The notes beneath the pieces are model-generated. The model saw nothing but the letters and a program-made list of their open reading frames with translations, searched no databases and had not been told where the DNA came from. A stretch of DNA of 11,537 nucleotides from an uncultured beta proteobacterium (GTDB lineage: Bacteria; Pseudomonadota; Gammaproteobacteria; Burkholderiales; Burkholderiaceae_C), in the NCBI GenBank assembly GCA_903870955.1, contig CAIQEX010000501.1, positions 1-11,537 of the forward strand, in the 5' to 3' direction. Positions 1 through 11,537 of this stretch are shown one piece after another. The position numbers and the translations under genes are program-made. Position 1 is the first letter of the stretch; each line of letters opens with the position of its first letter.

Positions 1-3000
1 ATCACCCCAACCAGCTGGTCGAGGTCATAGGGCTTGCCAACATGGTGATTCATGCCAGCAGCACGACATTGGGCGATGTCTGAATCCAGCACATTGGCCG
101 TGACCGCGATGATCGGGAGGTTGACCAGATGCGGTACCTTGCGGATCAGGCGTGTGGCCTCATAACCGTCCATCACCGGCATTTGAATATCCATCAGAAC
201 CACATCAAAACCCGTCTCCATCGGAGCCGCCAACGCGGCATCGACGCCCAGCCTGCCATTGGCAGCCAGGGTAACGACGGCCCCCTCCATGGTCAGCAAC
301 TGCTGGATCACAGTCTGATTGATCGCCACATCGTCCACCGCCAATATCCGTAGCCCTTTGAGTCTCTGCGGCTGCAAAGGCGGGGCTGGTAACGTTGGCA
401 GCGCTGGCAGCGCTGGCAGTGCTGGCAATGCTGCTTGAGGCATGCGGCCTTTGGCGTCTGCCCATGCAGCCTGCAACATGCTGGCGGTGAAGGGCTTGGC
501 CAGGTTCGCATTGACCTGCTCTGCCAAATCGAGCATGCGTTGCTGGCACACCGGATTGGCGTTGTTGCTGAGCAGAATGATGCACGGTTGGGGTTGTTGG
601 GCATCGCGGTACAAAGACCTGATCTGCGGCACCATCTGCGTGCTTTCCAGGTCAGGCAGATTCCAATCCAACAGGAGCAAGGTAAATGCCGTGCCGCCCG
701 GAGCAAGACCGCTCTGAATCATCGCCATGGCCGCCATAGCACTGTCAGTCGTGGAGACGCACCACTGCAATTGACTGGCCATTTCGCTGATCAGATCCAG
801 CGAAGTCCGGCTGTCATCCACAAGCAGCACCGCCTGTGAAGGCGACGGCGGGCTCAAAACAGGTTGAAGTACGGGATTTTCGTCAGGCATTGCGAGATCC
901 AGCGCAAAGGTAAAACTGCTGCCCACGCCGAGTGTGCTTTCCAGCGCGATGCTTCCCCCCATCAGCTCAACCAACCGCTGACTGATGGGCAGCCCCAGCC
1001 CGACACCCCCAAATGCGCGCGTCGTCGTCGACTCCACCTGCGTAAAGCTCTGAAAAACGCGCTGCCTGTGTTCGGGGGCTACGCCTATACCGGTATCCTG
1101 AATACAAAAGGTCAAGCGGCTGAAATCACTCTCAGGGTTTTGCAAGCCGATGCGGCAGATCACTTCGCCAGACAGGGTGAACTTGATCGCATTTCCCAGC
1201 AGGTTGCCCAGTACCTGCTGTAACCGCTGCTTGTCGCCAAACAAAAAGGCCGGCAAACGGGGATCCAAGTCGAATAACACCTCGATTTCCTTGGTTCCCA
1301 CGCTACCCAAAACCATGTCCGAGAGCGGTTGCAGGACTTCCTCCAACCGAAACGGCTTGGGAACCAGCAAAACAATTCCTGAGTTCAACTGTGCATATTC
1401 CAGCACCTGGTCAATCAGAACCACCATCATGTGTGAAGCCCGTCTGGCACTGTCAATATAGTTGCGCTGAATGCTACTCACATCGCTGCTGGACAGCAGT
1501 TTGAGAATGCCAAGTACCGCATTCATGGGGGTGCGCATTTCATGGCTCATATTGGTCATGAACTGGGTCTTCGCGAGTACCGCTTCTTCAGCCTTATCTC
1601 GCGCATCCTTCATGATCTCGGCCAGAAGGGTGGCATCGGTAACATCCATGTTGGTGCCGAATATGTATTCCACCCGTCCGTCCGCGTCCATGCGAGGGCT
1701 TCCTAGCGCCTTGATGTAGCGCACCGCGCCATCGGGTCGGATGATGCGAAATACGTGATCAAACGGCAGACCGGTGTTGATGGTGTGCTGGAACGCCTCG
1801 CGCGCAGCCTCAGCATCCTCTGGGTGCAAGTGTTCAGACCACAAGTCATAGATTTTGCGGGCAGCATGGGTCTTGCCGTCGACACCAAACAGGCGGTATT
1901 GCTGCTGGTCCCAGCTCTGTTCACCCGTTACCGTGTTTAAGGACCATATGCCGATACCGGCACTCTCCGTGGCCAGACGTACCCGCTCCAGAGCTTCGAC
2001 CAATTGGAGTTGCTTAGCTTTTCGCTCGGTGTTGTCGCGGTAGTTCAGCACCGTCCATCCGTTAGCAATCGGATAGGCTCGCAACTCGATATGGCGGCCA
2101 TCGAACTGGCGTCGCTCCAGAATCAAACTCTCTCTCGCTGCCATGGCGTTCTGCAAACGTGCCAGCACCGCATCTAAACTCTGTGCGTCCGAGTAGTCAC
2201 CGCGCGCATACTGGTAGCGAATCTGCTCGGCAAAATAGCAGGGCTTCCTGGATAGCAATTCGGGCGGCAGAGCCAGCATTTCTTCGAATTGTGCGTTGTG
2301 AAGACGCAGTATCTGCTGTTCGTCGTATACCGCCACACCATAGGGCGACGCGTCCACGACTTCGGCCAGCAACTGCGTTTGCCTTTCCAACTCCAACTCG
2401 GAAACCTTGCGCGCAGTGATGTCCAGGCGCATGGAAACATATTTTTCCACGCGGCCATCAACACCGAGAAACGGCGCAATCATGCTATCGACCCAATACA
2501 GTTGACCCTGGCTGTTGCGATTGCAAATTTCACCGCGCCAGGGCCGTCCATTGGAGATGTCCGCCCACATGGATAACCAGAACTCAGGCGAGTGCGTGCC
2601 GGAGTTCAGAATTTTGTGGTCTTGCCCGATCAATTGCTCAGCGCTGTAGCCGCCAATGGCACAGAAGGCCGCATTGACATCCATGATCCGACCAGAGCGG
2701 TCGGCGACCGAAACAATGGCATGCGTATTCATGGTTTGAAGCAAAGCCCTTGATTCACGCAGGCTCGCCTCCAGCGCGCGCTCGGTCCGCTTCAATTCCG
2801 TAATGTCGGTGCAGATTTCGATGAATCCGACCAGCTTGCCGCGTTTGTCGTAATGTGGCCTGAAGTCGACATCGACGAAATAGTGGCTGCCATCCTTGTG
2901 CCGGTTGCAGACGATGGCCCTGCAGGGTTGGCACCCACCAAGGCTGGTCTTGAGGGTTGCCAAAACTTTTGCGTCCGTCTGGCCACTGTCCAGTATTTCG

Positions 3001-3356
3001 TTCGGCCTGCGGCCGATGACTTCCTCCAGCGTGTAGCCACTCATCTGCGTGAAGCCGGCGTTTAACCAGTCAATGCGCCCGTCGATATCCAGCAGCAAGA
3101 CGGCCGTACTGGAAAGTTGAACCGCCTCTGACAGGATTTGTACCTCGCGGCCGTGCACCGCGCGGCTGCGCCAGAAAATGAAGGGGCCGACCAGAAGCGC
3201 CAGACTGAACGCGTCCAGCAACTCGACCTGCAGCGCACTCCCGCTTGGCGCCAGGTAGTCCAAAAAAAGCATGACGGCAAACTCGCCCAGCACCACCATT
3301 CCCAGAATTTCCAGGAAGAGGCGATTGCGTTGGAGCAGCCTTTTGATGTCAGTCAT
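1..3356 (-). CDS. Membrane hybrid sensor histidine kinase, four PAS domains and two receivers (3' end cut by window edge)
   Basis: The frame is open from ATG 3356 to the window edge: 1118 residues seen, no stop, no frameshift in my translation. Two hydrophobic helices (about 13-33 and 46-62) with a short loop anchor it in the inner membrane. Four PAS-type sensor domains follow at about 74-186, 199-315, 326-445 (PAS_7-like) and 455-573 (PAS_3-like). Next are HisKA with His605 in SHEMRTP, a HATPase with N box near 716-727 (GNLLGNAIKF) and glycine boxes QDTGIG and GVGLGL, then receiver 1 (Asp897 in LLDWNLPD, Lys954) and receiver 2 (Asp1056 in LMDIQMPVMDG). By family knowledge it autophosphorylates on His605 and passes phosphate to its receivers. 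No HPt domain is seen, but one could lie beyond the edge. It is the third gene in line after two sugar genes, 75 bases downstream of the second. Base composition seems lower in GC than its neighbours. The signal sensed is unknown. Confidence 0.95.
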   Translation of the reverse strand, partial: MTDIKRLLQRNRLFLEILGMVVLGEFAVMLFLDYLAPSGSALQVELLDAFSLALLVGPFIFWRSRAVHGREVQILSEAVQLSSTAVLLLDIDGRIDWLNAGFTQMSGYTLEEVIGRRPNEILDSGQTDAKVLATLKTSLGGCQPCRAIVCNRHKDGSHYFVDVDFRPHYDKRGKLVGFIEICTDITELKRTERALEASLRESRALLQTMNTHAIVSVADRSGRIMDVNAAFCAIGGYSAEQLIGQDHKILNSGTHSPEFWLSMWADISNGRPWRGEICNRNSQGQLYWVDSMIAPFLGVDGRVEKYVSMRLDITARKVSELELERQTQLLAEVVDASPYGVAVYDEQQILRLHNAQFEEMLALPPELLSRKPCYFAEQIRYQYARGDYSDAQSLDAVLARLQNAMAARESLILERRQFDGRHIELRAYPIANGWTVLNYRDNTERKAKQLQLVEALERVRLATESAGIGIWSLNTVTGEQSWDQQQYRLFGVDGKTHAARKIYDLWSEHLHPEDAEAAREAFQHTINTGLPFDHVFRIIRPDGAVRYIKALGSPRMDADGRVEYIFGTNMDVTDATLLAEIMKDARDKAEEAVLAKTQFMTNMSHEMRTPMNAVLGILKLLSSSDVSSIQRNYIDSARRASHMMVVLIDQVLEYAQLNSGIVLLVPKPFRLEEVLQPLSDMVLGSVGTKEIEVLFDLDPRLPAFLFGDKQRLQQVLGNLLGNAIKFTLSGEVICRIGLQNPESDFSRLTFCIQDTGIGVAPEHRQRVFQSFTQVESTTTRAFGGVGLGLPISQRLVELMGGSIALESTLGVGSSFTFALDLAMPDENPVLQPVLSPPSPSQAVLLVDDSRTSLDLISEMASQLQWCVSTTDSAMAAMAMIQSGLAPGGTAFTLLLLDWNLPDLESTQMVPQIRSLYRDAQQPQPCIILLSNNANPVCQQRMLDLAEQVNANLAKPFTASMLQAAWADAKGRMPQAALPALPALPALPTLPAPPLQPQRLKGLRILAVDDVAINQTVIQQLLTMEGAVVTLAANGRLGVDAALAAPMETGFDVVLMDIQMPVMDGYEATRLIRKVPHLVNLPIIAVTANVLDSDIAQCRAAGMNHHVGKPYDLDQLVGV
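394..429 (-). repeat. Nine-base tandem repeat encoding an Ala-Leu-Pro linker between the two receivers
   Basis: Four consecutive 9-base units (plus-strand GTTGGCAGC, GCTGGCAGC, GCTGGCAGT, GCTGGCAAT) stay in frame in the hybrid kinase. They encode a run of Ala-Leu-Pro with one Thr-Leu-Pro, at about residues 976-990, continuing into a Pro-rich stretch. The run sits exactly between receiver 1 and receiver 2, so it probably acts as a stiff, extended spacer. A repeat of this kind can change copy number by slippage without breaking the frame. Confidence 0.85.
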
Positions 3357-3431: not shown

Positions 3432-4904
3432 TCATCGGCTGCGCCACGCATGGGCATAGAGAATTTTGACACGCCCGGACAGGGTGGATTGCACCGCCAT
3501 GAAGGCATCTGCGGCGGCATAGGACTCACTGTCGAGCTGGCCACCCTTTTCGGTCCAGGCCGGTGCATGAATGAGGCCAATGGCGGTACGGCTGAAAAGC
3601 TCCTGCCAGTCCCGTCCCAGGGCATACCATTCCGGTTCCTGGCGGGGACGCAAACCAAACCAGCTGCGTCGGCCCTGCGCGATATCCAGCAATGCACCGT
3701 AGTGGGCCATCCAACGGTCCAGCGGGCGCGTGCTATGCGGCAGGCGCACGCTGACTTGCGTCAGGCGATCCTGTTCGCGCACACGCACGCGCGACTGCAC
3801 CACTTCGACCTGGCGCCAAAGCCCACGGCCGTTGCTGAGCCATTGCAACAACAGTGCGGGCAGCAAAAGCGGGCCCAGCACCAGCGCCACCAGCAGCGCC
3901 ACGGCCCGCGAAAACCACGGTGTTGTGGTGCGTGGGGCGCTGCGCAAAGTGGCCATCATGGCGTCTTCGGGGCTCAGCACGGTACGCACCGACCACTTCA
4001 GGCTTTGAATGGAGTTGCCCTGCGCCAGGGAATTTTCGAGTGTGATCTGGCCGCCCACATAGGTATTGGCCATGACCAGCGAGTGCCGCACAAGCGCACC
4101 ACGGGCCACATAGACGTCCCGCGCCAGCACCGTGCCCGGTCCCAACTCGGCCCCGGCTTCCACCACACAGGCGGGGCCAATCAGCACCGGGCCGTGAATC
4201 GCGGCGTCAGCATGAATCACGGCATCGGGGCTTGCCGCACCCCAAGGCATGGTTAGCCAGGACGCGGGAATGCACGCTTCCTGCGTGGCGTCCAGTGCGT
4301 GTGCCTGGGCCGACAGCAAATCCGTACCGCTCAGGCATTGCGCATGCTCCGCCTCGGTCGCAATCACGCAACGGGCGGCGTGCATACTGCGCACCCGCAG
4401 GGACAGCGACGCATAGTCCTGGTGCGGGCCCAGCGCGGTTACGGCGGCTGCATCGGCGCTAAACCAGCCGGTCCACGCCACGTCATTTGCCATGTGCAAA
4501 GCCGCTCCATTGGCGTCTACCAGTTCGCGCACGATGCGACTGGCCACCCATTGGTGCGCGTGTCCCAGCACAATGCGCTGGGTCGGATCCAGGGACATGC
4601 CGCGCAGCACTTTGTAGGGAGAAGCAGAATCCTTGGCGTGGTGCCACTGGATTCGGATGCCCCAGGGTGCACCGTCCTGCAGGATGCGGCGCAAAGCTTC
4701 GGGGTGCTCGCTAACCACCACATCGACCTGGCGCAGCCCGGCCAGTGCACAACTGTCCATGACGCGCTCTGCAAAGCTTGAGGATCCCATGGGCAAGAGG
4801 CAGGCCAGGGGCTGGTCTTCGCCCGGCACGTCGGCGGGTCGCCCATGGGTCATGAACAACACCACACGGGCAGGCTTGGGGGTGGAATGAAGGGAATCTT
4901 GCAT
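3432..4904 (-). CDS. Nucleotidyltransferase-like / left-handed beta-helix membrane protein with a sugar-transferase-like C-terminus
   Basis: 490 residues from ATG 4904. An in-frame start at 5006 would read backward through the end of the preceding transferase gene and adds unconserved-looking sequence, so I reject it. Residues about 12-215 resemble the NDP-sugar nucleotidyltransferase fold (PLACLLPMGSSSFAERVMD, then LAGLRQVDVVVSEHPEALR), but the usual GGxGTRL nucleotide loop is absent. Residues about 225-300 are hexapeptide-like turns of a left-handed beta helix (AVIHADAAIHGPVLIGP and following). A hydrophobic helix lies at about 334-357. Residues about 395-486 resemble the second half of bacterial sugar transferases: IAQGRRSWFGLRPRQ recalls their KGDMSLVGPRP segment, and the end recalls their DLKIL tail. 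The Asp-Glu catalytic pair of that family is missing. It follows the initiating transferase after 35 bases, pointing to a role in the same glycan pathway. Catalytic activity is doubtful; a structural, regulatory or modifying role is possible. Confidence 0.85.
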   Translation of the reverse strand: MQDSLHSTPKPARVVLFMTHGRPADVPGEDQPLACLLPMGSSSFAERVMDSCALAGLRQVDVVVSEHPEALRRILQDGAPWGIRIQWHHAKDSASPYKVLRGMSLDPTQRIVLGHAHQWVASRIVRELVDANGAALHMANDVAWTGWFSADAAAVTALGPHQDYASLSLRVRSMHAARCVIATEAEHAQCLSGTDLLSAQAHALDATQEACIPASWLTMPWGAASPDAVIHADAAIHGPVLIGPACVVEAGAELGPGTVLARDVYVARGALVRHSLVMANTYVGGQITLENSLAQGNSIQSLKWSVRTVLSPEDAMMATLRSAPRTTTPWFSRAVALLVALVLGPLLLPALLLQWLSNGRGLWRQVEVVQSRVRVREQDRLTQVSVRLPHSTRPLDRWMAHYGALLDIAQGRRSWFGLRPRQEPEWYALGRDWQELFSRTAIGLIHAPAWTEKGGQLDSESYAAADAFMAVQSTLSGRVKILYAHAWRSR

Positions 4905-4939
4905 GGGTGGTTTCGTGCTGAGAAAAGTACAAGCCGGCG

Positions 4940-5638
4940 TCAATAGGCGCCGCGGCCAAAAAGAACGGCAGGGATGGTTTTGAATAGAAGCTTGATATCG
5001 GTCCAAACCGACCGCTGATGGATGTAGTCAAGGTCCATTTCCACCTGCTGATCAAAGGGAATTTCGGAGCGACCGTTGACCTGCCAGAAACAGGTCAAGC
5101 CTGGCACCACACGCAGGCGCTCACGGTCACGCAGGCTGTACTGGGCGACTTCCGATGGCATTGGCGGACGTGGCCCGACCAGGGTCATCTGGCCGACGAG
5201 CACGCACCACAGCTGCGGCAACTCGTCGATGCTGAAACGGCGGATAAAGCGCCCGGTGGGGGTGATGCGCGGGTCACGCTTCATTTTGAAGGTGATGCCA
5301 TTGGCACCGTGCTGGTTCATGGCCGCAATTTTGGCGCGCACGGCGTCCGAATCCACACACATCGAGCGGAATTTGGGAAATGCGAACTCGCGCCCGCGGC
5401 GTCCCACGCGCTTTTGCCAATACAACACCGGGCCGCCGTCATACAAGCGGATGCACAGCGCCACCAGCAAAAAAAGCGGTGCCAACAAAACCAGGGCGGG
5501 CAGCACCAAGGCGATGTCCATGCCACGTTTAAGCACATTCAAGGTGCCCACTTTGATGCGCCACAGGAGACGTTTTTTGGCCGCCTGAAACTGGCTGGCG
5601 CGCTGGCTGGGAATCTGAGGCAGTTCGGGTGTTTTCAT
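4940..5638 (-). CDS. Undecaprenyl-phosphate sugar phosphotransferase (PglC-like monotopic phosphoglycosyl transferase)
   Basis: 232 residues from ATG 5638; the frame extends upstream, but that part lies in the divergent regulatory region. The family transfers a sugar-1-phosphate from a UDP-sugar to undecaprenyl phosphate, the first step of building a lipid-linked repeat unit at the cytoplasmic face of the inner membrane. Seen here: a membrane-insertion helix at about 41-65 after KRGMD, then GGPVLYWQKRVG and FPKFRSM (86-93), RDPRITPTGRFIRRFSIDELP with the Asp138-Glu139 catalytic pair, LVGPRPPMP, and PGLTCFWQVNGRSEIPF. It is the short form: it lacks the four N-terminal membrane helices of WcaJ/WbaP proteins. 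No clear ribosome binding site precedes the ATG. It heads a minus-strand group with the beta-helix protein and the large kinase. The sugar it uses cannot be read from sequence. Confidence 0.93.
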   Translation of the reverse strand: MKTPELPQIPSQRASQFQAAKKRLLWRIKVGTLNVLKRGMDIALVLPALVLLAPLFLLVALCIRLYDGGPVLYWQKRVGRRGREFAFPKFRSMCVDSDAVRAKIAAMNQHGANGITFKMKRDPRITPTGRFIRRFSIDELPQLWCVLVGQMTLVGPRPPMPSEVAQYSLRDRERLRVVPGLTCFWQVNGRSEIPFDQQVEMDLDYIHQRSVWTDIKLLFKTIPAVLFGRGAY

Positions 5639-5781
5639 GTTTTTCGTAGCTCGGGATGCGGTTACAGTTAACTCAACATGCCAATTACAGTTCAGTGCCG
5701 TCCCCAACATGTGACCGGATTGTGAATTTCGAAAATACCCCCTCTCCGTCCGTTCCCGCGTCCGCCCACGCCCATGCATCC
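5639..5781. promoter_or_regulatory. Divergent intergenic region between sugar transferase and signalling operon
   Basis: This is the only sizeable gap between divergent genes, so promoters for both the minus-strand sugar group and the plus-strand phosphorelay operon should lie here. I find no convincing -35/-10 pair. The left part (about 5640-5720) is visibly AT-richer than the coding DNA and carries two copies of TTACAGTT plus an AGTTAACT palindrome. The right part (5722-5781) may instead be coding, if the kinase starts at GTG 5722. Confidence 0.5.
5662..5692. repeat. Direct repeat TTACAGTT x2, 23 bases apart (possible operator)
   Basis: TTACAGTT occurs at 5662-5669 and again at 5685-5692, a 23-base period or about two helical turns, so both copies would face the same side of the DNA. 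The first copy runs into the palindrome AGTTAACT (5666-5673). The position between divergent starts suggests a regulator binding site. That function is inferred; I do not recognise the motif. Confidence 0.4.
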
Positions 5782-7563
5782 ATGAAGGTCATGGTTGCCG
5801 ACGATATCGACGCCAGCCGCCAGGAACTGCTGCAGACGGTGCGCAGTCTTGGCCATGAAGCCATCGAGGCGGAGAGCGGAGAGGCGGCCTTGCAATTGAT
5901 CGCGACCCAGCACCCGGATGTGCTGTTGCTGGACTTGCTGATGCCGGGCATGAACGGCTTTGAAGTGGCCCGCGCCATACGCCAGCGTGTCACCGGCCAA
6001 TGGCTTCCCGTGATTGTGTTGTCCGCGTTGCAGGGTGACGAGCACTACGCCCATGCCTTGGCCAGTGGCGCAGCCGATTGCCTGCTCAAACCGGTTAATC
6101 CCGCGATTTTGCAGGCCAAGCTGCGCCAGTACCAGCGCGTGCTAGGCCTGCAGGCCAGTGTGTCGCTGATGGCCCAGCGCCAGCATGCGATTCACGAACA
6201 CATTGCCGATGCCATCATCACCACAGACCGAAACGGCCGCGTCAGTGAACTCAATCGCGCCGCACGACGCCTGTTTGGACTGGACGAAGAGCAACTGAAG
6301 GCAGGCGTTTCGATCACGCAGCTGACCGGATCGGACATGGCTTTTCTGCTGGGTCAGACGAACGTGGATATCGATGTACGACAGGGTGTGAAAACACCGT
6401 TTTTCATCTCCCACAATTTCTGGAATATGGGCGACCAGGCGTTTTGCACCATTGCCCTGCATGACTTGAGCGAGTCGCGCCGACTGGAGCGCATGAAAGA
6501 TGAATTTCTGGCCACCGTCAGCCACGAGTTGCGCACCCCGCTGACTTCCATTTTGGGCGCGCTGGGCCTGCTGGCAGCCGGTGCCGGTGGCGCGCTGCCT
6601 GGGCGGGCTTTGGAGCTGGCCCATGTGGCCAAACGCAACGGTGACCGGTTGAGCCGCCTGATTGACGATGTGCTGGACTTGACCAAGCTGGAAGGCAATC
6701 GCATGCCGTTCAATCAGCGACCAAGCGCATTGGCCCCACTGATCCGGGAGGCCATCAACGCCAACGCCGGCTATGCGCAGCGCGGTGAGGTCACCTTGCA
6801 TTTTGAGGATGACGCCATGCCCTGCAAGGCGCAGGTGGACCCTGACCGGTTTCTGCAAATCATGGCCAATCTGCTGTCCAACGCCATCAAGCACACGCCC
6901 AAAGGCCGCGTGGTGCGCGTCGAGCTATTGCAGCGCGATTCCCATCTGCATGTCGACGTGGTGGACCAAGGGCCGGGCATTGATCCGGCATTTCGCAAGA
7001 AGTTATTTGAAAAGTTTACCCAAGCCGATAGCTCGGACCAGCGCGCCATTGGCGGCACCGGGTTGGGCCTGTATATCAGCCGCATGCTGGTGGAAAAAAT
7101 GGGCGGCACGATCCAGGCGGAGTCGGGTCCACAGGGTGGTGCCACCTTTCGGGTCACGCTGCCGCGCCTGTCGCAACCGCAGGAAGCACCCTGGATTCTG
7201 TGCATCGCCCAGGACCACCAATGGCTCGAACGCATGGCGGACTGGCTCTCGGAATTGGGCCATGTGGAGCGGGTCAACAGCCTGGGCGCCGCCGACGCGC
7301 TGGTGCGCCGGCGTGGACCGCCTGCTGCCCTGCTCGCCAACCCGCAGGCACAAGGGCCGGCGGATGCATTCTGCACACGCCTGCTGCAGATGCAGCAAGC
7401 CGAGCGCATTCTGTTGCTGAGTGACGCATTGGACGGCGCCTTTGCCGCACGCCATGGCATTAGCCTGGTTTCTGCATCCGCCACAACGCGCCATGAAATC
7501 ATTAACCAGGTGCGGGCTGCGCTGTCCGGACCCAGCGGAGACATACCCCATGGACATGTTTGA
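5782..7563 (+). CDS. Soluble hybrid histidine kinase: receiver-PAS-HisKA-HATPase-degenerate receiver
   Basis: 593 residues from ATG 5782. GTG 5722 and ATG 5656 are in-frame alternatives, none has a clear ribosome binding site, and I chose the start that begins right at the receiver's first strand (MKVMVADD). Receiver: about 2-120, Asp7/Asp8, phosphoacceptor Asp51 in LLLDLLMP, Ser81, Lys103. PAS: about 133-232. HisKA: His248 in ATVSHELRTPL. HATPase: about 350-462 with N box ANLLSNAIKH, DQGPGI and GGTGLGLYIS. The last domain, about 470-583, has the length and strand pattern of a receiver but lacks its acidic pair, phosphoacceptor Asp and Lys. No membrane helix, so it is cytosolic and its activity may be set through its own N-terminal receiver. 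Its end overlaps the stand-alone receiver gene. An input receiver at the front suggests it sits in the middle of a signalling chain. Certain as a kinase; the start is uncertain. Confidence 0.93.
   Translation: MKVMVADDIDASRQELLQTVRSLGHEAIEAESGEAALQLIATQHPDVLLLDLLMPGMNGFEVARAIRQRVTGQWLPVIVLSALQGDEHYAHALASGAADCLLKPVNPAILQAKLRQYQRVLGLQASVSLMAQRQHAIHEHIADAIITTDRNGRVSELNRAARRLFGLDEEQLKAGVSITQLTGSDMAFLLGQTNVDIDVRQGVKTPFFISHNFWNMGDQAFCTIALHDLSESRRLERMKDEFLATVSHELRTPLTSILGALGLLAAGAGGALPGRALELAHVAKRNGDRLSRLIDDVLDLTKLEGNRMPFNQRPSALAPLIREAINANAGYAQRGEVTLHFEDDAMPCKAQVDPDRFLQIMANLLSNAIKHTPKGRVVRVELLQRDSHLHVDVVDQGPGIDPAFRKKLFEKFTQADSSDQRAIGGTGLGLYISRMLVEKMGGTIQAESGPQGGATFRVTLPRLSQPQEAPWILCIAQDHQWLERMADWLSELGHVERVNSLGAADALVRRRGPPAALLANPQAQGPADAFCTRLLQMQQAERILLLSDALDGAFAARHGISLVSASATTRHEIINQVRAALSGPSGDIPHGHV
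7537..7540 (+). promoter_or_regulatory. Ribosome binding site of the stand-alone receiver, inside the kinase gene
   Basis: GGAG lies 9 bases before ATG 7550, within the last codons of the kinase. It selects ATG 7550 over the in-frame GTG at 7421 and implies that receiver and kinase are translated in a coupled way. Confidence 0.55.
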
Positions 7564-7936
7564 GCGCGTGATGTGTGTGGAGGACGATGCCGACATTCGC
7601 ACCATCCTGGATTTCAGTTTGGGCGGCATGGGCGGTTTCACGCTCAGCCTGTGCGAAAGTGGTCCACAGGCGCTGGAGCGGGCGGAATCGTTCCGACCGC
7701 AATTGGTGTTGCTGGATGTGATGATGCCCGAGATGAGCGGCCCGGAAACGCTGATCAAGTTGCGCGCGCTGCCCGCGATGAAGGGCGTACCCATCGTCTT
7801 CCTGACCGCCAAGGCGATGCAGGATGAGGTCGAGGCGCTATTGGAATGTGGTGCCACAGGCATCATCGTCAAGCCGTTCGATCCGGTGGCGTTGCCGCAA
7901 AACATCCGCATTTACTGGGAACACGGGCGTGGCTAG
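7550..7936 (+). CDS. Stand-alone response regulator receiver protein (CheY/DivK type)
   Basis: 128 residues, a receiver domain and nothing else. The acidic pocket is Glu11-Asp12-Asp13 (CVEDDADI), the phosphoacceptor Asp56 in VLLDVMMPEMSG, the switch Thr86 in VFLTAK, and the lysine Lys108 in VKPFDP, so all residues needed for phosphorylation are present. With no output domain it should act by protein contact or as a phosphate carrier. The gene begins 14 bases before the end of the kinase gene and its own end overlaps the HPt gene, so the three are made together. Likely phosphodonor is the upstream kinase (His248); likely acceptor is the HPt protein. Both are inferred from gene order. Confidence 0.93.
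   Translation: MDMFERVMCVEDDADIRTILDFSLGGMGGFTLSLCESGPQALERAESFRPQLVLLDVMMPEMSGPETLIKLRALPAMKGVPIVFLTAKAMQDEVEALLECGATGIIVKPFDPVALPQNIRIYWEHGRG
7917..7921 (+). promoter_or_regulatory. Ribosome binding site of the HPt gene, inside the receiver gene
   Basis: GGGAA ends 7 bases before GTG 7929 and lies in the last codons of the receiver. It is the reason for choosing the GTG at 7929 rather than the next one at 7938. Confidence 0.45.
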
Positions 7937-8243
7937 CGTGCCAACGGGTCTGGGCCCTGCCTTCGCCGAACAGTTTCTAAAAATACAGCAAACCTTTGTC
8001 GCTGGTCTGGCGCAACGTCTGCACGATATTCAACACGCACCCGATGCACAGGCCTGCCATGTGGCCCTGCATCGCCTGGCCGGTGCAGCAGGTGGTTACG
8101 GTTTTGAGGCCTTGAGTCGGTTGGCCCGCGAGACCATGGAGGCACAGCAGGCAGGCCAGGAATTGCTCTTTCAGTCCGCGCTTCAACGCCTGGCTCAAGC
8201 CGTTACCGACATCCAGGCCACGCCGGCTGATCGGGCCACCTAG
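7929..8243 (+). CDS. Stand-alone histidine phosphotransfer (HPt) protein
   Basis: 104 residues from GTG 7929, overlapping the receiver's stop by 8 bases. Nearly the whole protein is one HPt helical bundle. The phosphorylatable residue is His48 in ALHRLAGAAGGYGFEAL, which fits the family pattern His-x-Leu-(Lys/Ala)-Gly-x-x-x-x-x-Gly. The lysine often following this histidine is replaced by Ala51. Family knowledge: HPt proteins shuttle phosphate between receivers and have no catalysis of their own. Here it probably takes phosphate from the stand-alone receiver or a kinase receiver and hands it to a regulator outside the window. It could also serve the large hybrid kinase nearby, which shows no HPt domain. 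Short, with a GTG start, so easily missed in annotation. Confidence 0.85.
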   Translation: MASVPTGLGPAFAEQFLKIQQTFVAGLAQRLHDIQHAPDAQACHVALHRLAGAAGGYGFEALSRLARETMEAQQAGQELLFQSALQRLAQAVTDIQATPADRAT

Positions 8244-8260
8244 CGGCGCTTGACAACACT

Positions 8261-8285
8261 GTGCACGCCGGTCGGCGGGGTGCAC
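8261..8285. terminator. Stem-loop between convergent genes (possible two-way terminator)
   Basis: GTGCAC at 8261-8266 and again at 8280-8285 is self-complementary and can pair. Inside it, GCC and GGC can pair around a four-base loop, with three unpaired G on one side. It fills the 41-base gap between the convergent HPt and glycosyltransferase genes, the right place for a shared terminator. No T-run follows on either strand, so classical intrinsic termination is not assured. Confidence 0.4.
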
Positions 8286-9349
8286 TACGCCTTTACCGTC
8301 AGCACACCCAGCAAGCTGTGTGTGGCATCGGTCCACGAATAGGCGTGGGCTGTGGCATGGGCCCGGTCTGACAGGGTTTGCCAGGCGGCATGGGAATCAC
8401 GACACAAGGCCACGATGGCACGCGCCATGTCTTCGGCAGATTCGTTGTGTACCAGCACCCCACCACCTTGCGCAATCAGATCGGGCGCGGCGCCAATCGG
8501 CACGCCGATGACCGGGGTGCGACAGGCCATGGCTTCCAGAATGGGCAGGCCAAAGCTGTCCAGACGCGAGCCAAACAACCAGTAGTCGCAAGCCGCATAG
8601 TGCGCACGCAACTCCTGCTGCGCCGGGCGGTAGAAGTATTGCGCACCCACCGGCAACGGCAACTCTGCAGACACCGCCTCGGTGCCAAAGGCCAACACCT
8701 GCAGATCGGGAATTTGCTGGCGCGCCAATTCACAGGCGGCAATACAGATGTCGCTGCCTTTGATGGCGGCATGCGCATAGATAAAGCCGACGCGTGTCGG
8801 GCTGTTGCGCGCACGCAAGGGCGCGTTGAACTGCTGCAGATCGACCGCATTGGGCACCACCTTGATGTCCAGCGGTCCGAGCTCTGCCTCGATGGTTTGT
8901 GCCAGTCCGCGCGAGATGGCTATCTTGGTGTTGGGCAGGCGCAAAGCGGCATGCAGTTGCGGCAGCACCTGCGGGCCAAACCAGCTTTCGTAGCCCTGGA
9001 TCAGGTGCACCCGGCGGCCCTTGGCCTCGGGGAAGCCATGCATCCAGACCGCTGTCTCCCACCAGGTGGCCACCACCACGTCGGCTTCGGGCACATCCCG
9101 GGCGGTAATGGGGCCCAGGCGGTCCATCACTTTGTGCGGCACACCCGAGAGTTCGATGTGGCCGAGCGGGCCTGGAGGCCGGCTCGGGGCGAACCACGCG
9201 CGCAGTCGCTGGCGCCAGGGCAACCGGTCTTGGGCACAGGTAATCACCAGCACCTCGTGGCCGAGTTTTTGTAGCTCGCTGGCATACACCGCGACGACAC
9301 GCGCGCCACCGGTGAAGTTGTCGCAGGGTAATAAAAAAGTAAAGCGCAT
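8285..9349 (-). CDS. Glycosyltransferase family 4 (GT-B fold)
   Basis: 354 residues from ATG 9349. The N-terminal half has the loop DNFTGGARVVA (10-20) and helix typical of GT-B enzymes. The C-terminal Glycos_transf_1 half begins near 186 (RVGFIYAHAAIKGSD, with Lys197 at the usual phosphate-binding place) and ends with the donor site SRLDSFGLPILEAMACRTP. The family E-x7-E motif appears as Asp264-x7-Glu272, a conservative change. Such retaining enzymes move a sugar from a nucleotide sugar to the growing lipid-linked chain at the cytoplasmic membrane face. It follows the flippase gene by 21 bases and is surely part of the same transcript. No clear ribosome binding site is visible. Donor and linkage cannot be told. 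Confidence 0.93.
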   Translation of the reverse strand: MRFTFLLPCDNFTGGARVVAVYASELQKLGHEVLVITCAQDRLPWRQRLRAWFAPSRPPGPLGHIELSGVPHKVMDRLGPITARDVPEADVVVATWWETAVWMHGFPEAKGRRVHLIQGYESWFGPQVLPQLHAALRLPNTKIAISRGLAQTIEAELGPLDIKVVPNAVDLQQFNAPLRARNSPTRVGFIYAHAAIKGSDICIAACELARQQIPDLQVLAFGTEAVSAELPLPVGAQYFYRPAQQELRAHYAACDYWLFGSRLDSFGLPILEAMACRTPVIGVPIGAAPDLIAQGGGVLVHNESAEDMARAIVALCRDSHAAWQTLSDRAHATAHAYSWTDATHSLLGVLTVKA

Positions 9350-9370: not shown

Positions 9371-10753
9371 TCAGCGCAAAAACGCACTGAGCAACTGGTG
9401 AATAAGCCAACCCAGGCCGCTGCTAACCAGCAGGGCCAGCGGCCAGACGGCCTCGGATTTCCAGGACATCAGGCCATGCCGCACCTTGAAGACCAGGGCT
9501 ACAGGCCAACCGGCAAACTGGCTTGCCACCACGGCCAGCACGGCTCCCTGCACGCCGCCCCACGCATAGGCCAGCGGCACCAGCACCACCAGTGCAAGCG
9601 CACGCAGCGTGTTGCTCAAGGTGACCCAGCCGGGTCGGTTGCGGGCAAACATCATCTGCTCCAGCACCTGGTAGCGCATGGCCACCAGACCCAGGGCCAG
9701 CAACTGCAGCATCCATCCGGCTTCGGCATAGCGCGTGTCGTACAACACCTGCACCACCCAACCGCCCAGCACCAGCGTCAAGCCGGAAATGCTGCCCAGG
9801 ATGGCATCGGCCAGTTGCTGCACGCGGGTGTACACCTTGTGCGCCTCGGCATCCCCGTTGCGCAGTGCTTCGCTCAGGCTGGGAAACACCAGGTGCGCAT
9901 TGAGGTTGCCCACCAGACCGACGATGGCCGCCAGCAACAGCGAGGCAATGGAGAACACACCAAAGTACTGCGCTGCCAAGGTGCCGCCCATGATGAGCTT
10001 TTCGCCATTCGCAGCGGCAAAGCCGATGATGGACGAGAGAAATATCCATTTGCCAAAGCCCACGATGTCGCGCAGGCTGGCGCGGTCCCAGCAGGGCTTG
10101 TAGGCCGGGCCATCAAACAGGGTGTGGCTGAGCACGGTGCGCGCCAGCGTCGCTGTGACGGTACCCAGCAGCAGGCTCCAGACCGAATGCGTCCACCCCG
10201 CACAGCCGATGGTGACCAGCATGCCGGCGAGTTGCGTCAGGAGTTCCAGGCGCGTAAGAAGTCGGGTTTGCAGGGCGCGCTGCGCGGTGGCAATGTGCAT
10301 CGACTCAAGCCCTTGCAACACGGCACTGAGTGCGAAGACCAGCACCATGGCGGGCAGTCGCGCATCGGCGTAGACGGTATCGGCCCGAAACGGTGCATAG
10401 AGGGCGCTGAGCTTGAGGCCCAACGCAATCAGCGCCACGATGGCGGCCAGCAGCAGTCCCCGAACGCATTGGACGGAGAACGCGGTGCCCAGAAATTTTG
10501 GCTGTTCGCCTTGCGGGTGCGTGACCACGCTTTGCCAGACGCCCAGATCAGAAAACATGACCAGCCCAAAGTACAGCGTTTGCACCGCAGCCATCAGGCC
10601 AAAGGACTCGGGCAACAGCAGCCGTGTGAGCACCAGGCTGCTGAGCAGACGCAGCGCTTGCGATGTCACATTGCTGCCCACCAGCCAGGCGGCTGCGTGC
10701 CACATGCGGCGCTGCAAGGCGCGGCTGGTGTCCGGTAAGGCTGCGGCTACCAC
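9371..10753 (-). CDS. Wzx-like lipid-linked oligosaccharide flippase (MOP superfamily, polysaccharide biosynthesis protein)
   Basis: 460 residues from GTG 10753, the size usual for Wzx. The protein is mostly hydrophobic, with about 12 predicted membrane helices separated by short charged loops. The first follows RALQRRMWHAAAWLVGS, the typical amphipathic start of this family; further examples are GLLLAAIVALIALGL and ALALVVLVPLAYAW. The family flips undecaprenyl-linked repeat units from the cytoplasmic to the periplasmic face. The GTG overlaps the preceding gene's stop as GTGGTAG, suggesting coupled translation. ATG 10705 is an alternative giving 444 residues but loses the basic leader; an upstream start at 11104 runs through the glycosyltransferase gene in another frame and is rejected. 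The matching Wzy polymerase is not in the window. Membership in the superfamily is firm; the exact substrate is unknown. Confidence 0.9.
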   Translation of the reverse strand: MVAAALPDTSRALQRRMWHAAAWLVGSNVTSQALRLLSSLVLTRLLLPESFGLMAAVQTLYFGLVMFSDLGVWQSVVTHPQGEQPKFLGTAFSVQCVRGLLLAAIVALIALGLKLSALYAPFRADTVYADARLPAMVLVFALSAVLQGLESMHIATAQRALQTRLLTRLELLTQLAGMLVTIGCAGWTHSVWSLLLGTVTATLARTVLSHTLFDGPAYKPCWDRASLRDIVGFGKWIFLSSIIGFAAANGEKLIMGGTLAAQYFGVFSIASLLLAAIVGLVGNLNAHLVFPSLSEALRNGDAEAHKVYTRVQQLADAILGSISGLTLVLGGWVVQVLYDTRYAEAGWMLQLLALGLVAMRYQVLEQMMFARNRPGWVTLSNTLRALALVVLVPLAYAWGGVQGAVLAVVASQFAGWPVALVFKVRHGLMSWKSEAVWPLALLVSSGLGWLIHQLLSAFLR

Positions 10754-11537
10754 GGCTTGACCGGGCTGGTGGTGCCGGAGTGCGTGTCGGTCCAGGCTTG
10801 ACGCAACTGGCTGCAGTGCATCGCCATGTCGCTGGCCTTGTCGGTTTGGCGGCGCAACGCAGCGCGCAGTCCGCGCAGGCGGTGCCAAACCCACTCGATC
10901 GCCATCAAACCGAACGCACCGGACAGGCCGTGGTGCTTGCGGTAATACAGCATGGCGCTGCGCATGCGCCAGCTCTCCAGTTGCGAGCCCGCGCGTGAGA
11001 CGCGGGCGCTGGTCACCGTCTTGGCTGAAGCGCCGCCGATGTGCACGGCCTTGAGGCGCGGCCAATACAGGACGGAATAGCCGGCTTGCTGCAGGCGTCG
11101 GCACAGGTCCACTTCTTCGTAGTACATGAAGAAGCGTTCATCAAAGCCGCTCAGTTTCAGAAACACGTTGCGCGGCAGAAACACGAAGGCGCCGGGAATC
11201 CAGTCCACCGCCGCGTCCTGCTCGGGGTCTGCCCAGCGCCGGTCCAGCCGCGCAAACGTGCGGCTCTGCGGATACTTGGCAGCCAGGCCGGACATGGTGA
11301 AAATTTCGTCACGCAGCGTGGGGAACATGCGCGCCGAGGGCTCGCGCTCGCCACGGGTGTTGCGCAGCTCACCGCCGGCCATGCCCGCTTCGGGATGCGC
11401 GTCCATTAGCGCAATGCCTTGCGCCAGCGCACCGGGTGCGGGCACTGCATCGGGGTTGAGCAATAGCAAGTAGCGGCCACTGGCACTTTTTGCGGCCAGA
11501 TTGTTGCCTGCGGCAAAGCCCAGGTTGATGCGGTTGG
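10747..11537 (-). CDS. Glycosyltransferase family 2, rhamnosyltransferase (WbbL)-like, N-terminus cut by window edge
   Basis: 262 residues are visible in an open frame that enters from the right edge; the start and the nucleotide-binding first strands lie outside. Seen: NLGFAAGNNLA, then the acidic metal-site region LLLLNPDAVP, the acceptor-side segment AVDWIPGAFVFLPRNVF, and GFDERFFMYYEEVDLCRRLQQAGY with the conserved acidic pair, followed by VHIGG. These are hallmarks of the GT2 group that includes rhamnosyltransferase WbbL. It transfers a sugar from a nucleotide donor to the lipid-linked glycan in the cytoplasm. A C-terminal basic, weakly hydrophobic tail may lie on the membrane. It overlaps the flippase gene by 7 bases. 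Rhamnose as donor is only a family guess. Confidence 0.92.
   Translation of the reverse strand, partial: NRINLGFAAGNNLAAKSASGRYLLLLNPDAVPAPGALAQGIALMDAHPEAGMAGGELRNTRGEREPSARMFPTLRDEIFTMSGLAAKYPQSRTFARLDRRWADPEQDAAVDWIPGAFVFLPRNVFLKLSGFDERFFMYYEEVDLCRRLQQAGYSVLYWPRLKAVHIGGASAKTVTSARVSRAGSQLESWRMRSAMLYYRKHHGLSGAFGLMAIEWVWHRLRGLRAALRRQTDKASDMAMHCSQLRQAWTDTHSGTTSPVKPW

What the first reader, a model, noticed from the sequence alone, without database searches (positions are those of the whole stretch)
5782..8243. Split three-gene phosphorelay inserted between exopolysaccharide genes
Kinase, lone receiver and lone HPt are encoded in order with both junctions overlapping (14 and 8 bases), between a convergent flippase/glycosyltransferase group and a divergent initiating transferase. 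No output domain is encoded, so the relay must act through a regulator elsewhere or directly on glycan machinery. The overlaps suggest fixed ratios of the three proteins. Placement implies control of polysaccharide production, which is an inference from context.
Basis: partly seen in the sequence, partly recalled or inferred. Interest (0 to 1): 0.7.

Follow-up and report, generated by a model that had tools for sequence, protein, structure and literature searches.

The report
Exopolysaccharide phosphorelay feeding a partner switch

Summary
In detail: kinase 5782-7563, lone receiver 7550-7936 and lone HPt 7929-8243 follow each other with 14- and 8-base overlaps, between a divergent sugar transferase and a convergent GT4. 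The kinase is REC-PAS-HisKA-HATPase plus a C-terminal pseudo-receiver (predicted fold). The 'no output' reading needs changing. The window is one contig of a MAG; its first 227 bases match (97.8%) the end of contig C642, where the window's hybrid kinase ends in an HPt and is followed by a REC-SpoIIE(PP2C)-HATPase_c_2 regulator, the genome's only SpoIIE hit. In 25 of 30 distinct loci (window included) a STAS gene follows the HPt. Among 299 family genomes, close STAS relatives (E<=1e-30) occur in exactly the 12 that hold a lone HPt in the three-gene set, and in none of 287 others. Best reading: HK-RR-HPt is the input of a STAS/PP2C partner switch, here attached to an exopolysaccharide locus, working like HptB-HsbR-HsbA of Pseudomonas or SypE-SypA of Vibrio. 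Linkage to the transferase is real but partial (15 of 28 assessable loci). Phosphotransfer and the final target are inferred. New variant of a known kind.

The parts
5782..7563 (+). Kinase, 593 aa: REC (5788-6123) - PAS (6184-6297) - HisKA (6493-6696) - HATPase_c (6838-7167) - C-terminal pseudo-receiver (7180-7533)
   Evidence: Pfam; relatives aligned (HisKA His 248 invariant in 12 of 12; REC Asp 51 in 11 of 12); AF2, Foldseek for the C-terminal domain
7550..7936 (+). Lone receiver (CheY-like), 128 aa; Asp 12, 13, 56, Thr 86 and Lys 108 invariant in 12 of 12
   Evidence: Pfam; alignment
7929..8243 (+). Lone HPt, 104 aa, GTG start; His 48 invariant in 11 of 11 (L038, cut, left out)
   Evidence: Pfam; alignment
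5639..5781 (.). Gap between the divergent transferase and kinase genes, presumed shared promoter region (inferred)
   Evidence: start codons; relatives align to the transferase from about residue 47-48 in L029 and L030
4940..5638 (-). Initiating sugar-phosphate transferase (Bac_transf); the ORF can be read back to 5779
   Evidence: Pfam, start
3432..5006 (-). 524-aa protein with a weak hexapeptide (left-handed beta-helix) match, below Pfam's cut-off; in two relatives fused behind Bac_transf-like and WecG/TagA domains
3..3356 (-). Hybrid kinase PAS-HisKA-HATPase-REC-REC, cut by the contig end; on contig C642 it continues to an HPt and is followed by REC-SpoIIE-HATPase_c_2
1..227 (.). Overlap with the right end of contig C642 of the same genome (11596-11822), 97.8% over 227 bases: the join to the partner-switch gene
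8285..9349 (-). GT4 glycosyltransferase, convergent with the HPt gene
9371..11104 (-). Flippase (Polysacc_synt_3); the true start is probably further in, since the ORF overlaps the GT2 gene
   Evidence: Pfam match 158-461
10747..11535 (-). GT2 glycosyltransferase, 5' end off the contig

Best explanation
The three genes are the input half of a signalling unit whose output half is a partner switch. Proposed steps: the kinase autophosphorylates on the HisKA histidine (residues present, activity inferred). Phosphate passes through a receiver (its own N-terminal REC and/or the lone receiver) and the lone HPt (inferred). The HPt and the C-terminal HPt of the neighbouring hybrid kinase set the state of the REC-SpoIIE-HATPase_c_2 regulator (inferred). 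That protein dephosphorylates (PP2C domain) or phosphorylates (HATPase_c_2 domain) a single-domain STAS protein at its D-S-S-G motif (inferred from the families). The STAS protein then changes partner and raises or lowers exopolysaccharide output, either by freeing a regulator or through a diguanylate cyclase such as the REC-GGDEF encoded just upstream of this genome's STAS gene (inferred). The pseudo-receiver at the kinase's C-terminus probably tunes the kinase rather than taking phosphate (inferred). What is shown: gene structure, intact catalytic residues, conserved gene neighbourhood and co-occurrence. What is not shown: any phosphotransfer, the direction of control and the final target.
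For: STAS co-occurrence: in 299 family genomes close STAS relatives (E<=1e-30) occur in 12 genomes, the same 12 that hold the lone HPt with HK-RR; 0 of 287 others; Fisher p about 1e-21, relatedness not corrected, cut-off chosen after seeing the list. Neighbourhood: STAS follows the HPt on the same strand, within about 500 bases, in 25 of 30 distinct loci; in Pseudacidovorax L047 HK-RR-HPt-STAS-SpoIIE/HATPase_c_2 is one run with the last three junctions overlapping. SpoIIE: best E<=1e-20 in 12 of 12 module genomes against 54 of 287 others (counted by me from its rows; Fisher 6e-9); a query of SpoIIE plus HATPase_c_2 hits 11 of 12 module genomes and 0 of 11 module-less genomes of the same genera at E<=1e-20. 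Own genome: one SpoIIE hit, REC-SpoIIE-HATPase_c_2, on the contig that overlaps the window's end. Catalytic residues kept (motifs recalled). Precedents: HptB to HsbR (REC-PP2C-kinase) to HsbA (PMC6482189 passages), HsbA-P binding a diguanylate cyclase (PMC5085249 passages), SypE acting on SypA in a polysaccharide locus (PMC3610818 abstract).
Against: In this genome the STAS gene is not beside the HPt but on another contig (C654). Of seven SpoIIE proteins from module loci scanned with Pfam, only the three of the window's clade (own, L041, L042) have a receiver; L038, L045, L047 and L089 (the last cut off by the fetched stretch) show sensor domains and none, so a direct HPt-to-SpoIIE transfer cannot be the general rule. 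The receivers on SpoIIE proteins are not a clade with the lone receiver. At E<=1e-3 SpoIIE matches are in 260 of 299 genomes, so the SpoIIE contrast depends on the stricter cut-off. G017 has no SpoIIE-HATPase_c_2 match at 1e-20. The divergent transferase is absent beside the kinase in 13 of 28 assessable loci. The genome has 25 HPt matches, so other donors exist. Three of 20 STAS relatives vary at the serine motif: L039 DSAG, L056 DSLG, L060 DGIG. The two Pseudomonas-type loci dropped from the counts have no STAS match.
Confidence: 0.5

Rival explanations
1. The relay and the partner switch are co-inherited neighbours that both regulate the same process, without phosphate passing from one to the other: the relay ends on the lone receiver or a transcription regulator, while the SpoIIE protein senses its own signal through PAS or Cache domains.
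For: SpoIIE proteins scanned from module loci outside the window's clade (L038, L045, L047, L089) carry sensor domains and no receiver; receivers on SpoIIE proteins do not group with the lone receiver; STAS/REC-SpoIIE pairs beside transferase genes exist with no HK-RR-HPt set found (L091, L092, L096, L097).
Against: The 12-for-12 STAS co-occurrence and close, often overlapping placement behind the HPt suggest a closer tie; in this genome the SpoIIE protein does carry a receiver.
Confidence: 0.2
2. The relay ends on a separate DNA-binding response regulator that transcribes the polysaccharide genes: the OmpR-type regulator encoded convergently beside the STAS gene in this clade.
For: OmpR-type regulator next to STAS in the own genome (L098:6567-7322) and in L030 (7429-8136); a protein cluster with an OmpR-type member (L045) is found in 4 of the 21 loci clustered (L042, L045, L056, L061).
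Against: That cluster was not called in the other 17 of 21 loci, whereas STAS is nearly always there.
Confidence: 0.13
3. The relay controls c-di-GMP: the HPt donates to a REC-GGDEF protein, and the STAS protein modulates it.
For: In Stutzerimonas and P. benzenivorans an HPt resembling this one is fused to REC-GGDEF right behind an HK-RR pair (L062, L065); in the own genome a REC-GGDEF gene ends 22 bases before the longest STAS ORF (L098); HsbA-P binds diguanylate cyclase HsbD (PMC5085249 passages).
Against: GGDEF was not seen in the other module-locus neighbours scanned with Pfam, but only part of them was scanned; the Pseudomonas-type kinases and receivers are distant (41-49%).
Confidence: 0.12
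4. As the first reader's alternative: the phosphorylated lone receiver binds the glycan machinery (such as the divergent transferase) directly.
For: The lone receiver is the best conserved of the three proteins (mean pairwise identity 65% against 52% for the kinase and 40% for the HPt); the transferase gene is the divergent neighbour in 15 of 28 loci.
Against: The receiver is about as conserved in loci without the transferase (65-67% to the window's in L033-L037, 59-76% in loci with it); hub receivers such as MrrA (PMC5964349 abstract) are precedents for a signalling role.
Confidence: 0.05

Closest known systems
HptB-HsbR-HsbA of Pseudomonas aeruginosa (PMC6482189, PMC5085249: passages seen)
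   Same: HPt protein feeding a regulator of REC-PP2C-kinase/anti-sigma domains, the domain order of the own genome's 548-aa protein; an anti-sigma-factor antagonist as partner; biofilm output; a diguanylate cyclase tied to the antagonist.
   Different: There the HPt is fed by three hybrid kinases; here kinase, lone receiver and HPt form one overlapping set beside polysaccharide genes, and four of seven scanned SpoIIE proteins of module loci show no receiver. No direct sequence comparison with HsbR or HsbA was made.
SypE-SypA of the Vibrio fischeri syp locus (PMC3610818 abstract; PMC8256260 passages)
   Same: Partner switch (REC with serine kinase and phosphatase, STAS protein) in a polysaccharide locus under two-component control.
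   Different: SypE order is kinase-REC-phosphatase; syp also has the response regulator SypG; that it has no three-gene HK-RR-HPt set is recalled, not checked.
MrrA-PhyK-PhyR of Caulobacter (PMC5964349 abstract)
   Same: A single-domain receiver acts as hub, passing phosphate through a protein with histidine-phosphotransferase role to a partner switch.
   Different: Alphaproteobacterial general stress response with PhyR rather than SpoIIE/STAS; not a polysaccharide locus.
CrsR-CrsA of Shewanella (named in PMC6482189 passages)
   Same: A regulator with anti-sigma domain and its antagonist, reported there as homologous to HsbR and HsbA.
   Different: Targets RpoS (recalled; the passages seen treat RpoS as its target too); not compared by sequence here.

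Membership tests
Multistep phosphorelay (HK, receiver, HPt) | HisKA plus HATPase_c kinase with phospho-accepting His | tested here: met
Multistep phosphorelay (HK, receiver, HPt) | Receiver with intact acidic pair, Asp, Thr, Lys | tested here: met
   also the kinase's N-terminal REC
Multistep phosphorelay (HK, receiver, HPt) | HPt with conserved His | tested here: met
Multistep phosphorelay (HK, receiver, HPt) | Phosphotransfer among the three proteins | not testable with these tools
   needs purified proteins
HptB-HsbR-HsbA type relay plus partner switch | REC-PP2C-HATPase_c_2 regulator in the genome | tested here: met
   (contig C642, overlapping the window's left end)
HptB-HsbR-HsbA type relay plus partner switch | Single-domain STAS partner co-inherited with the HPt | tested here: met
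   (12 of 12 against 0 of 287 at E<=1e-30)
HptB-HsbR-HsbA type relay plus partner switch | The SpoIIE regulator carries a REC wherever the module occurs | tested here: not met
   seen in 3 of 7 scanned SpoIIE proteins of module loci (own, L041, L042); not in L038, L045, L047, L089 (L089 cut by the fetched stretch)
HptB-HsbR-HsbA type relay plus partner switch | HPt transfers phosphate to the regulator; STAS serine is modified | not testable with these tools
   inferred only
HptB-HsbR-HsbA type relay plus partner switch | Orthology to HsbR/HsbA by sequence | not tested
   those sequences were not fetched
syp-type polysaccharide partner switch | STAS and kinase/phosphatase genes near polysaccharide genes | tested here: met
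   REC-SpoIIE gene beside Wzy_C and AAA_31 genes; STAS on a contig with NTP_transferase, ManC and PGM/PMM genes
syp-type polysaccharide partner switch | Kinase-REC-phosphatase domain order of SypE | tested here: not met
   order is REC-SpoIIE-HATPase_c_2
Pseudo-receiver (kinase C-terminus) | Receiver fold | tested here: met
   predicted only: AF2 pLDDT 94.8, (beta-alpha)5; most of the top 50 PDB matches are receivers, CikA's pseudo-receiver among them, 5 are decarboxylases. No sequence support: hhalign against the lone receivers 1.4%
Pseudo-receiver (kinase C-terminus) | No conserved phospho-acceptor site | tested here: inconclusive
   after strand 3 the nine relatives have Asn (4, window included), Asp (4) or His (1), and no Lys is invariant; which residue aligns with the acceptor is itself unsure

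The most novel reading that the evidence does not exclude
HK-RR-HPt-STAS (with a SpoIIE/HATPase_c_2 partner) is an undescribed signalling unit of Burkholderiales and relatives that plugs into polysaccharide loci and gates polymer assembly after translation through the STAS protein, with the lone receiver as a hub joining a histidine-aspartate relay to serine phosphorylation.
Probability: 0.25. Interest if true: 0.72.

Novelty: new variant of a known kind. Interest (0 to 1): 0.55.

Why it matters
If true, the missing output of a three-gene relay is found, and a compact gene set (kinase, receiver, HPt, STAS, PP2C/kinase), contiguous in the cultured strain Pseudacidovorax intermedius DSM 21352 (L047), becomes available to test how histidine-aspartate signalling is converted to serine phosphorylation. 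It would extend a mechanism known in detail from a few systems to a broader set of betaproteobacteria.

Tried and rejected
Kinase profile (A1) search over 399 order genomes found only the own genome: in the rows shown only 3 candidates per genome were scored, so this is a limit of the search, not evidence of absence; HPt and STAS were used instead. 'The lone receiver was fused onto SpoIIE elsewhere' (Rosetta stone) was tested with a tree and rejected: SpoIIE receivers do not form a clade with lone receivers; those of the own clade are closest to the kinase's N-terminal REC by BLAST (42-46%) (long branches, several weak forks). Sequence evidence for the pseudo-receiver failed (hhalign 1.4%); it rests on predicted structure. 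HPt profile against PDB gave no useful solved relative. Literature searches for an earlier description (0 papers; 3, unrelated by title and abstract start; 0; 29 papers, 12 listed, none recognised as describing this set) cover only the open-licence library. Rows dropped before counting: from 37 loci (window, 11, 25) five duplicates (L043, L044, L047, L057, L059, judged from contig lengths and positions) and two Pseudomonas-type loci (L062, L065); 30 remain.
Full report
What is there. The window is a whole contig (C501) of a 787-contig MAG, 86.8% complete, 5.6% contaminated. Pfam places REC, PAS, HisKA and HATPase_c in the kinase, Response_reg in the second protein and Hpt in the third. NCBIfam names no specific system for them: the matches shown for kinase and receiver (best 25 of 158 and of 90) are below their cut-offs, and the HPt has none. 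On the left, on the other strand, lie a Bac_transf transferase, a protein with a weak hexapeptide match and a hybrid kinase that runs off the contig; on the right, convergent, GT4, flippase and GT2.

The kinase has a further domain. Residues 467-584 match no Pfam family. Folded alone from nine relatives they give a (beta-alpha)5 model (pLDDT 94.8, pTM 0.87); most of its top 50 PDB matches are receivers, CikA's pseudo-receiver among them, and 5 are amino-acid decarboxylases. After strand 3 the nine relatives have Asn (4, the window included), Asp (4) or His (1), and no Lys is invariant, so an active site is not conserved. Profile comparison with the lone receivers gave no support (1.4%), so the claim rests on predicted structure. 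The domain is missing from three of the twelve aligned kinases (L033, L035, L037).

Relatives by HPt. In 299 genomes of the family, 26, own included, have an HPt match at E<=1e-3. I fetched 11 of the 25 others, those with an open frame of lone-HPt size; all 11 carry kinase, receiver and HPt in this order. The other 14 were set aside because their matches lie in long frames (487-2998 residues). A scan of named genomes gave 25 loci, among them a beta-proteobacterial MAG (L041: kinase 72%, receiver 89%, HPt 81% identical), Rhodoferax, Rubrivivax, Paucibacter, Azohydromonas, Pseudacidovorax, Burkholderia, Chitinilyticum and Deefgea. After removing five duplicates and two Pseudomonas-type loci, 30 distinct loci remain, the window included. 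In 28 of these the three genes can be read in order; L050 and L064 begin inside the set.

Linkage to sugar genes. The divergent transferase stands beside the kinase in 15 of 28 assessable loci (window, L029, L030, L031, L032, L038, L039, L041, L042, L046, L051, L054, L055, L058, L063). It was not found in 13, such as Azohydromonas and Pseudacidovorax (one of these, L034, has only 682 bases before the kinase). One more locus with the whole set and the transferase, L089, came from the STAS search.

The missing output. A STAS gene follows the HPt on the same strand, within about 500 bases, in 25 of 30 loci (Pfam for examples). The five others are the window, L030, L041, L042 and L038 (cut by the contig end). 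A STAS protein of the own genome (contig C654) is 84% identical to the one in Rhodoferax L042 and 70% to that of Paucibacter L058. Searched against the 299 family genomes it gives 14 genomes at E<=1e-12; 12 of them are at E<=1e-30, and these are the same 12 that hold the lone HPt set; none of the 287 others reaches that level (G051 and G245 come next at about 5e-24). The cut-off was chosen after seeing the list. In nine of the 12 the STAS gene is directly behind the HPt; in G130 it is 2 kb away; in G291 and the own genome it is on another contig.

SpoIIE-HATPase_c_2. The own genome has one SpoIIE match, on contig C642, in a 548-aa REC-SpoIIE-HATPase_c_2 protein. C642's last 227 bases match the window's first 227 at 97.8%, and the hybrid kinase cut at the window's end continues there to an HPt, directly followed by this gene. 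The same order is seen unbroken in L041 and L042. In the 299 genomes SpoIIE matches at E<=1e-3 are common (260 genomes); at E<=1e-20 there are 66 by my count: all 12 module genomes and 54 of 287 others (Fisher 6e-9). With a query of both domains, 11 of 12 module genomes and 0 of 11 module-less genomes of the same genera match at E<=1e-20; G017 is the exception. The 11 controls are the module-less same-genus genomes shown for genera g1, g29, g37, g72, g77 and g130, so their SpoIIE values were already known to me; one of them, G036, has a SpoIIE match of another kind (3.5e-28, no match). Relatedness is not otherwise corrected. Within the fetched stretches SpoIIE-HATPase_c_2 is seen in 16 of 30 loci.

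Mechanism. The precedents are HptB, which phosphorylates the REC of HsbR (REC-PP2C-kinase) and so sets HsbA (passages of PMC6482189, and PMC5085249), and SypE/SypA in a polysaccharide locus (abstract of PMC3610818). The own genome's set fits the first in domain order. In this genome the longest STAS ORF also begins 22 bases behind a REC-GGDEF gene, on a contig with NTP_transferase, ManC and PGM/PMM genes, which recalls HsbA and diguanylate cyclase HsbD. Against a simple picture: of seven SpoIIE proteins of module loci scanned with Pfam, three have a receiver (own, L041, L042) and four show only sensor domains (L038, L045, L047 and L089, the last cut off), and receivers on SpoIIE proteins do not group with the lone receiver. 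How the relay reaches the switch in those is open; the lone receiver, the best conserved of the three, is a candidate hub, as MrrA is in Caulobacter (abstract of PMC5964349). The STAS protein is as conserved as the receiver (mean pairwise identity 67% over 12 STAS rows, 65% over 12 receivers).

Beyond the family. A STAS profile search in 349 order genomes gave 8 at E<=1e-15 including the own one. Of the 7 others, all fetched, G351 has the full set with transferase; G429 and G556 have transferase, hexapeptide-type protein, STAS and a REC-PAS-SpoIIE-HATPase_c_2 protein with no HK-RR-HPt found in the stretch, and so do G051 and G245 of the own family; G597 has STAS with REC-PAS-SpoIIE; in G301, G485 and G410 the three-gene set was not found. 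So the partner switch can sit in such loci without the three-gene relay, with a receiver of its own.

Verdict. Observation confirmed; interpretation partly supported; a new variant of a known kind, with the co-occurrence as the firm new result and the phosphate route as inference. No earlier description was recognised in the listings of the open-licence library, which lacks most subscription journals.

Noticed in passing
window 1-227 and G000:C642 (L075) 11596-11822: Two contigs of the MAG overlap by 227 bases at 97.8%, inside the hybrid kinase gene: possibly strain variation that broke the assembly.
   Followed up: yes
L062:9938-11587 and L065:9911-11569: In Stutzerimonas and Pseudomonas benzenivorans an HPt resembling this one is fused to REC-GGDEF right behind an HK-RR pair.
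   Followed up: partly
L031:8708-11488, L039:4002-6818: The hexapeptide-type protein of the window is fused in relatives behind a Bac_transf-like and a WecG/TagA domain.
   Followed up: partly
L093:10304-13486: A 1060-aa protein with SpoIIE, two receiver matches and HATPase_c_2, beside a STAS gene: another arrangement of the same kind of switch.
   Followed up: no
L089:1-1776: A SpoIIE protein with HNOBA (heme-NO-binding-associated) and PAS domains, cut by the fetched stretch, in a genome with the full module: possible NO or redox input.
   Followed up: no
L035:7913-9376: The N-terminal receiver of the Pseudacidovorax kinase has lost its acidic pair and acceptor aspartate.
   Followed up: no
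L091, L092, L096, L097: Transferase - hexapeptide-type protein - STAS - REC-PAS-SpoIIE-HATPase_c_2 clusters with no HK-RR-HPt set found.
   Followed up: partly
G000:C654 (L098) 6567-8747: REC-GGDEF gene ending 22 bases before the longest STAS ORF, with a convergent OmpR-type regulator on the other side.
   Followed up: partly
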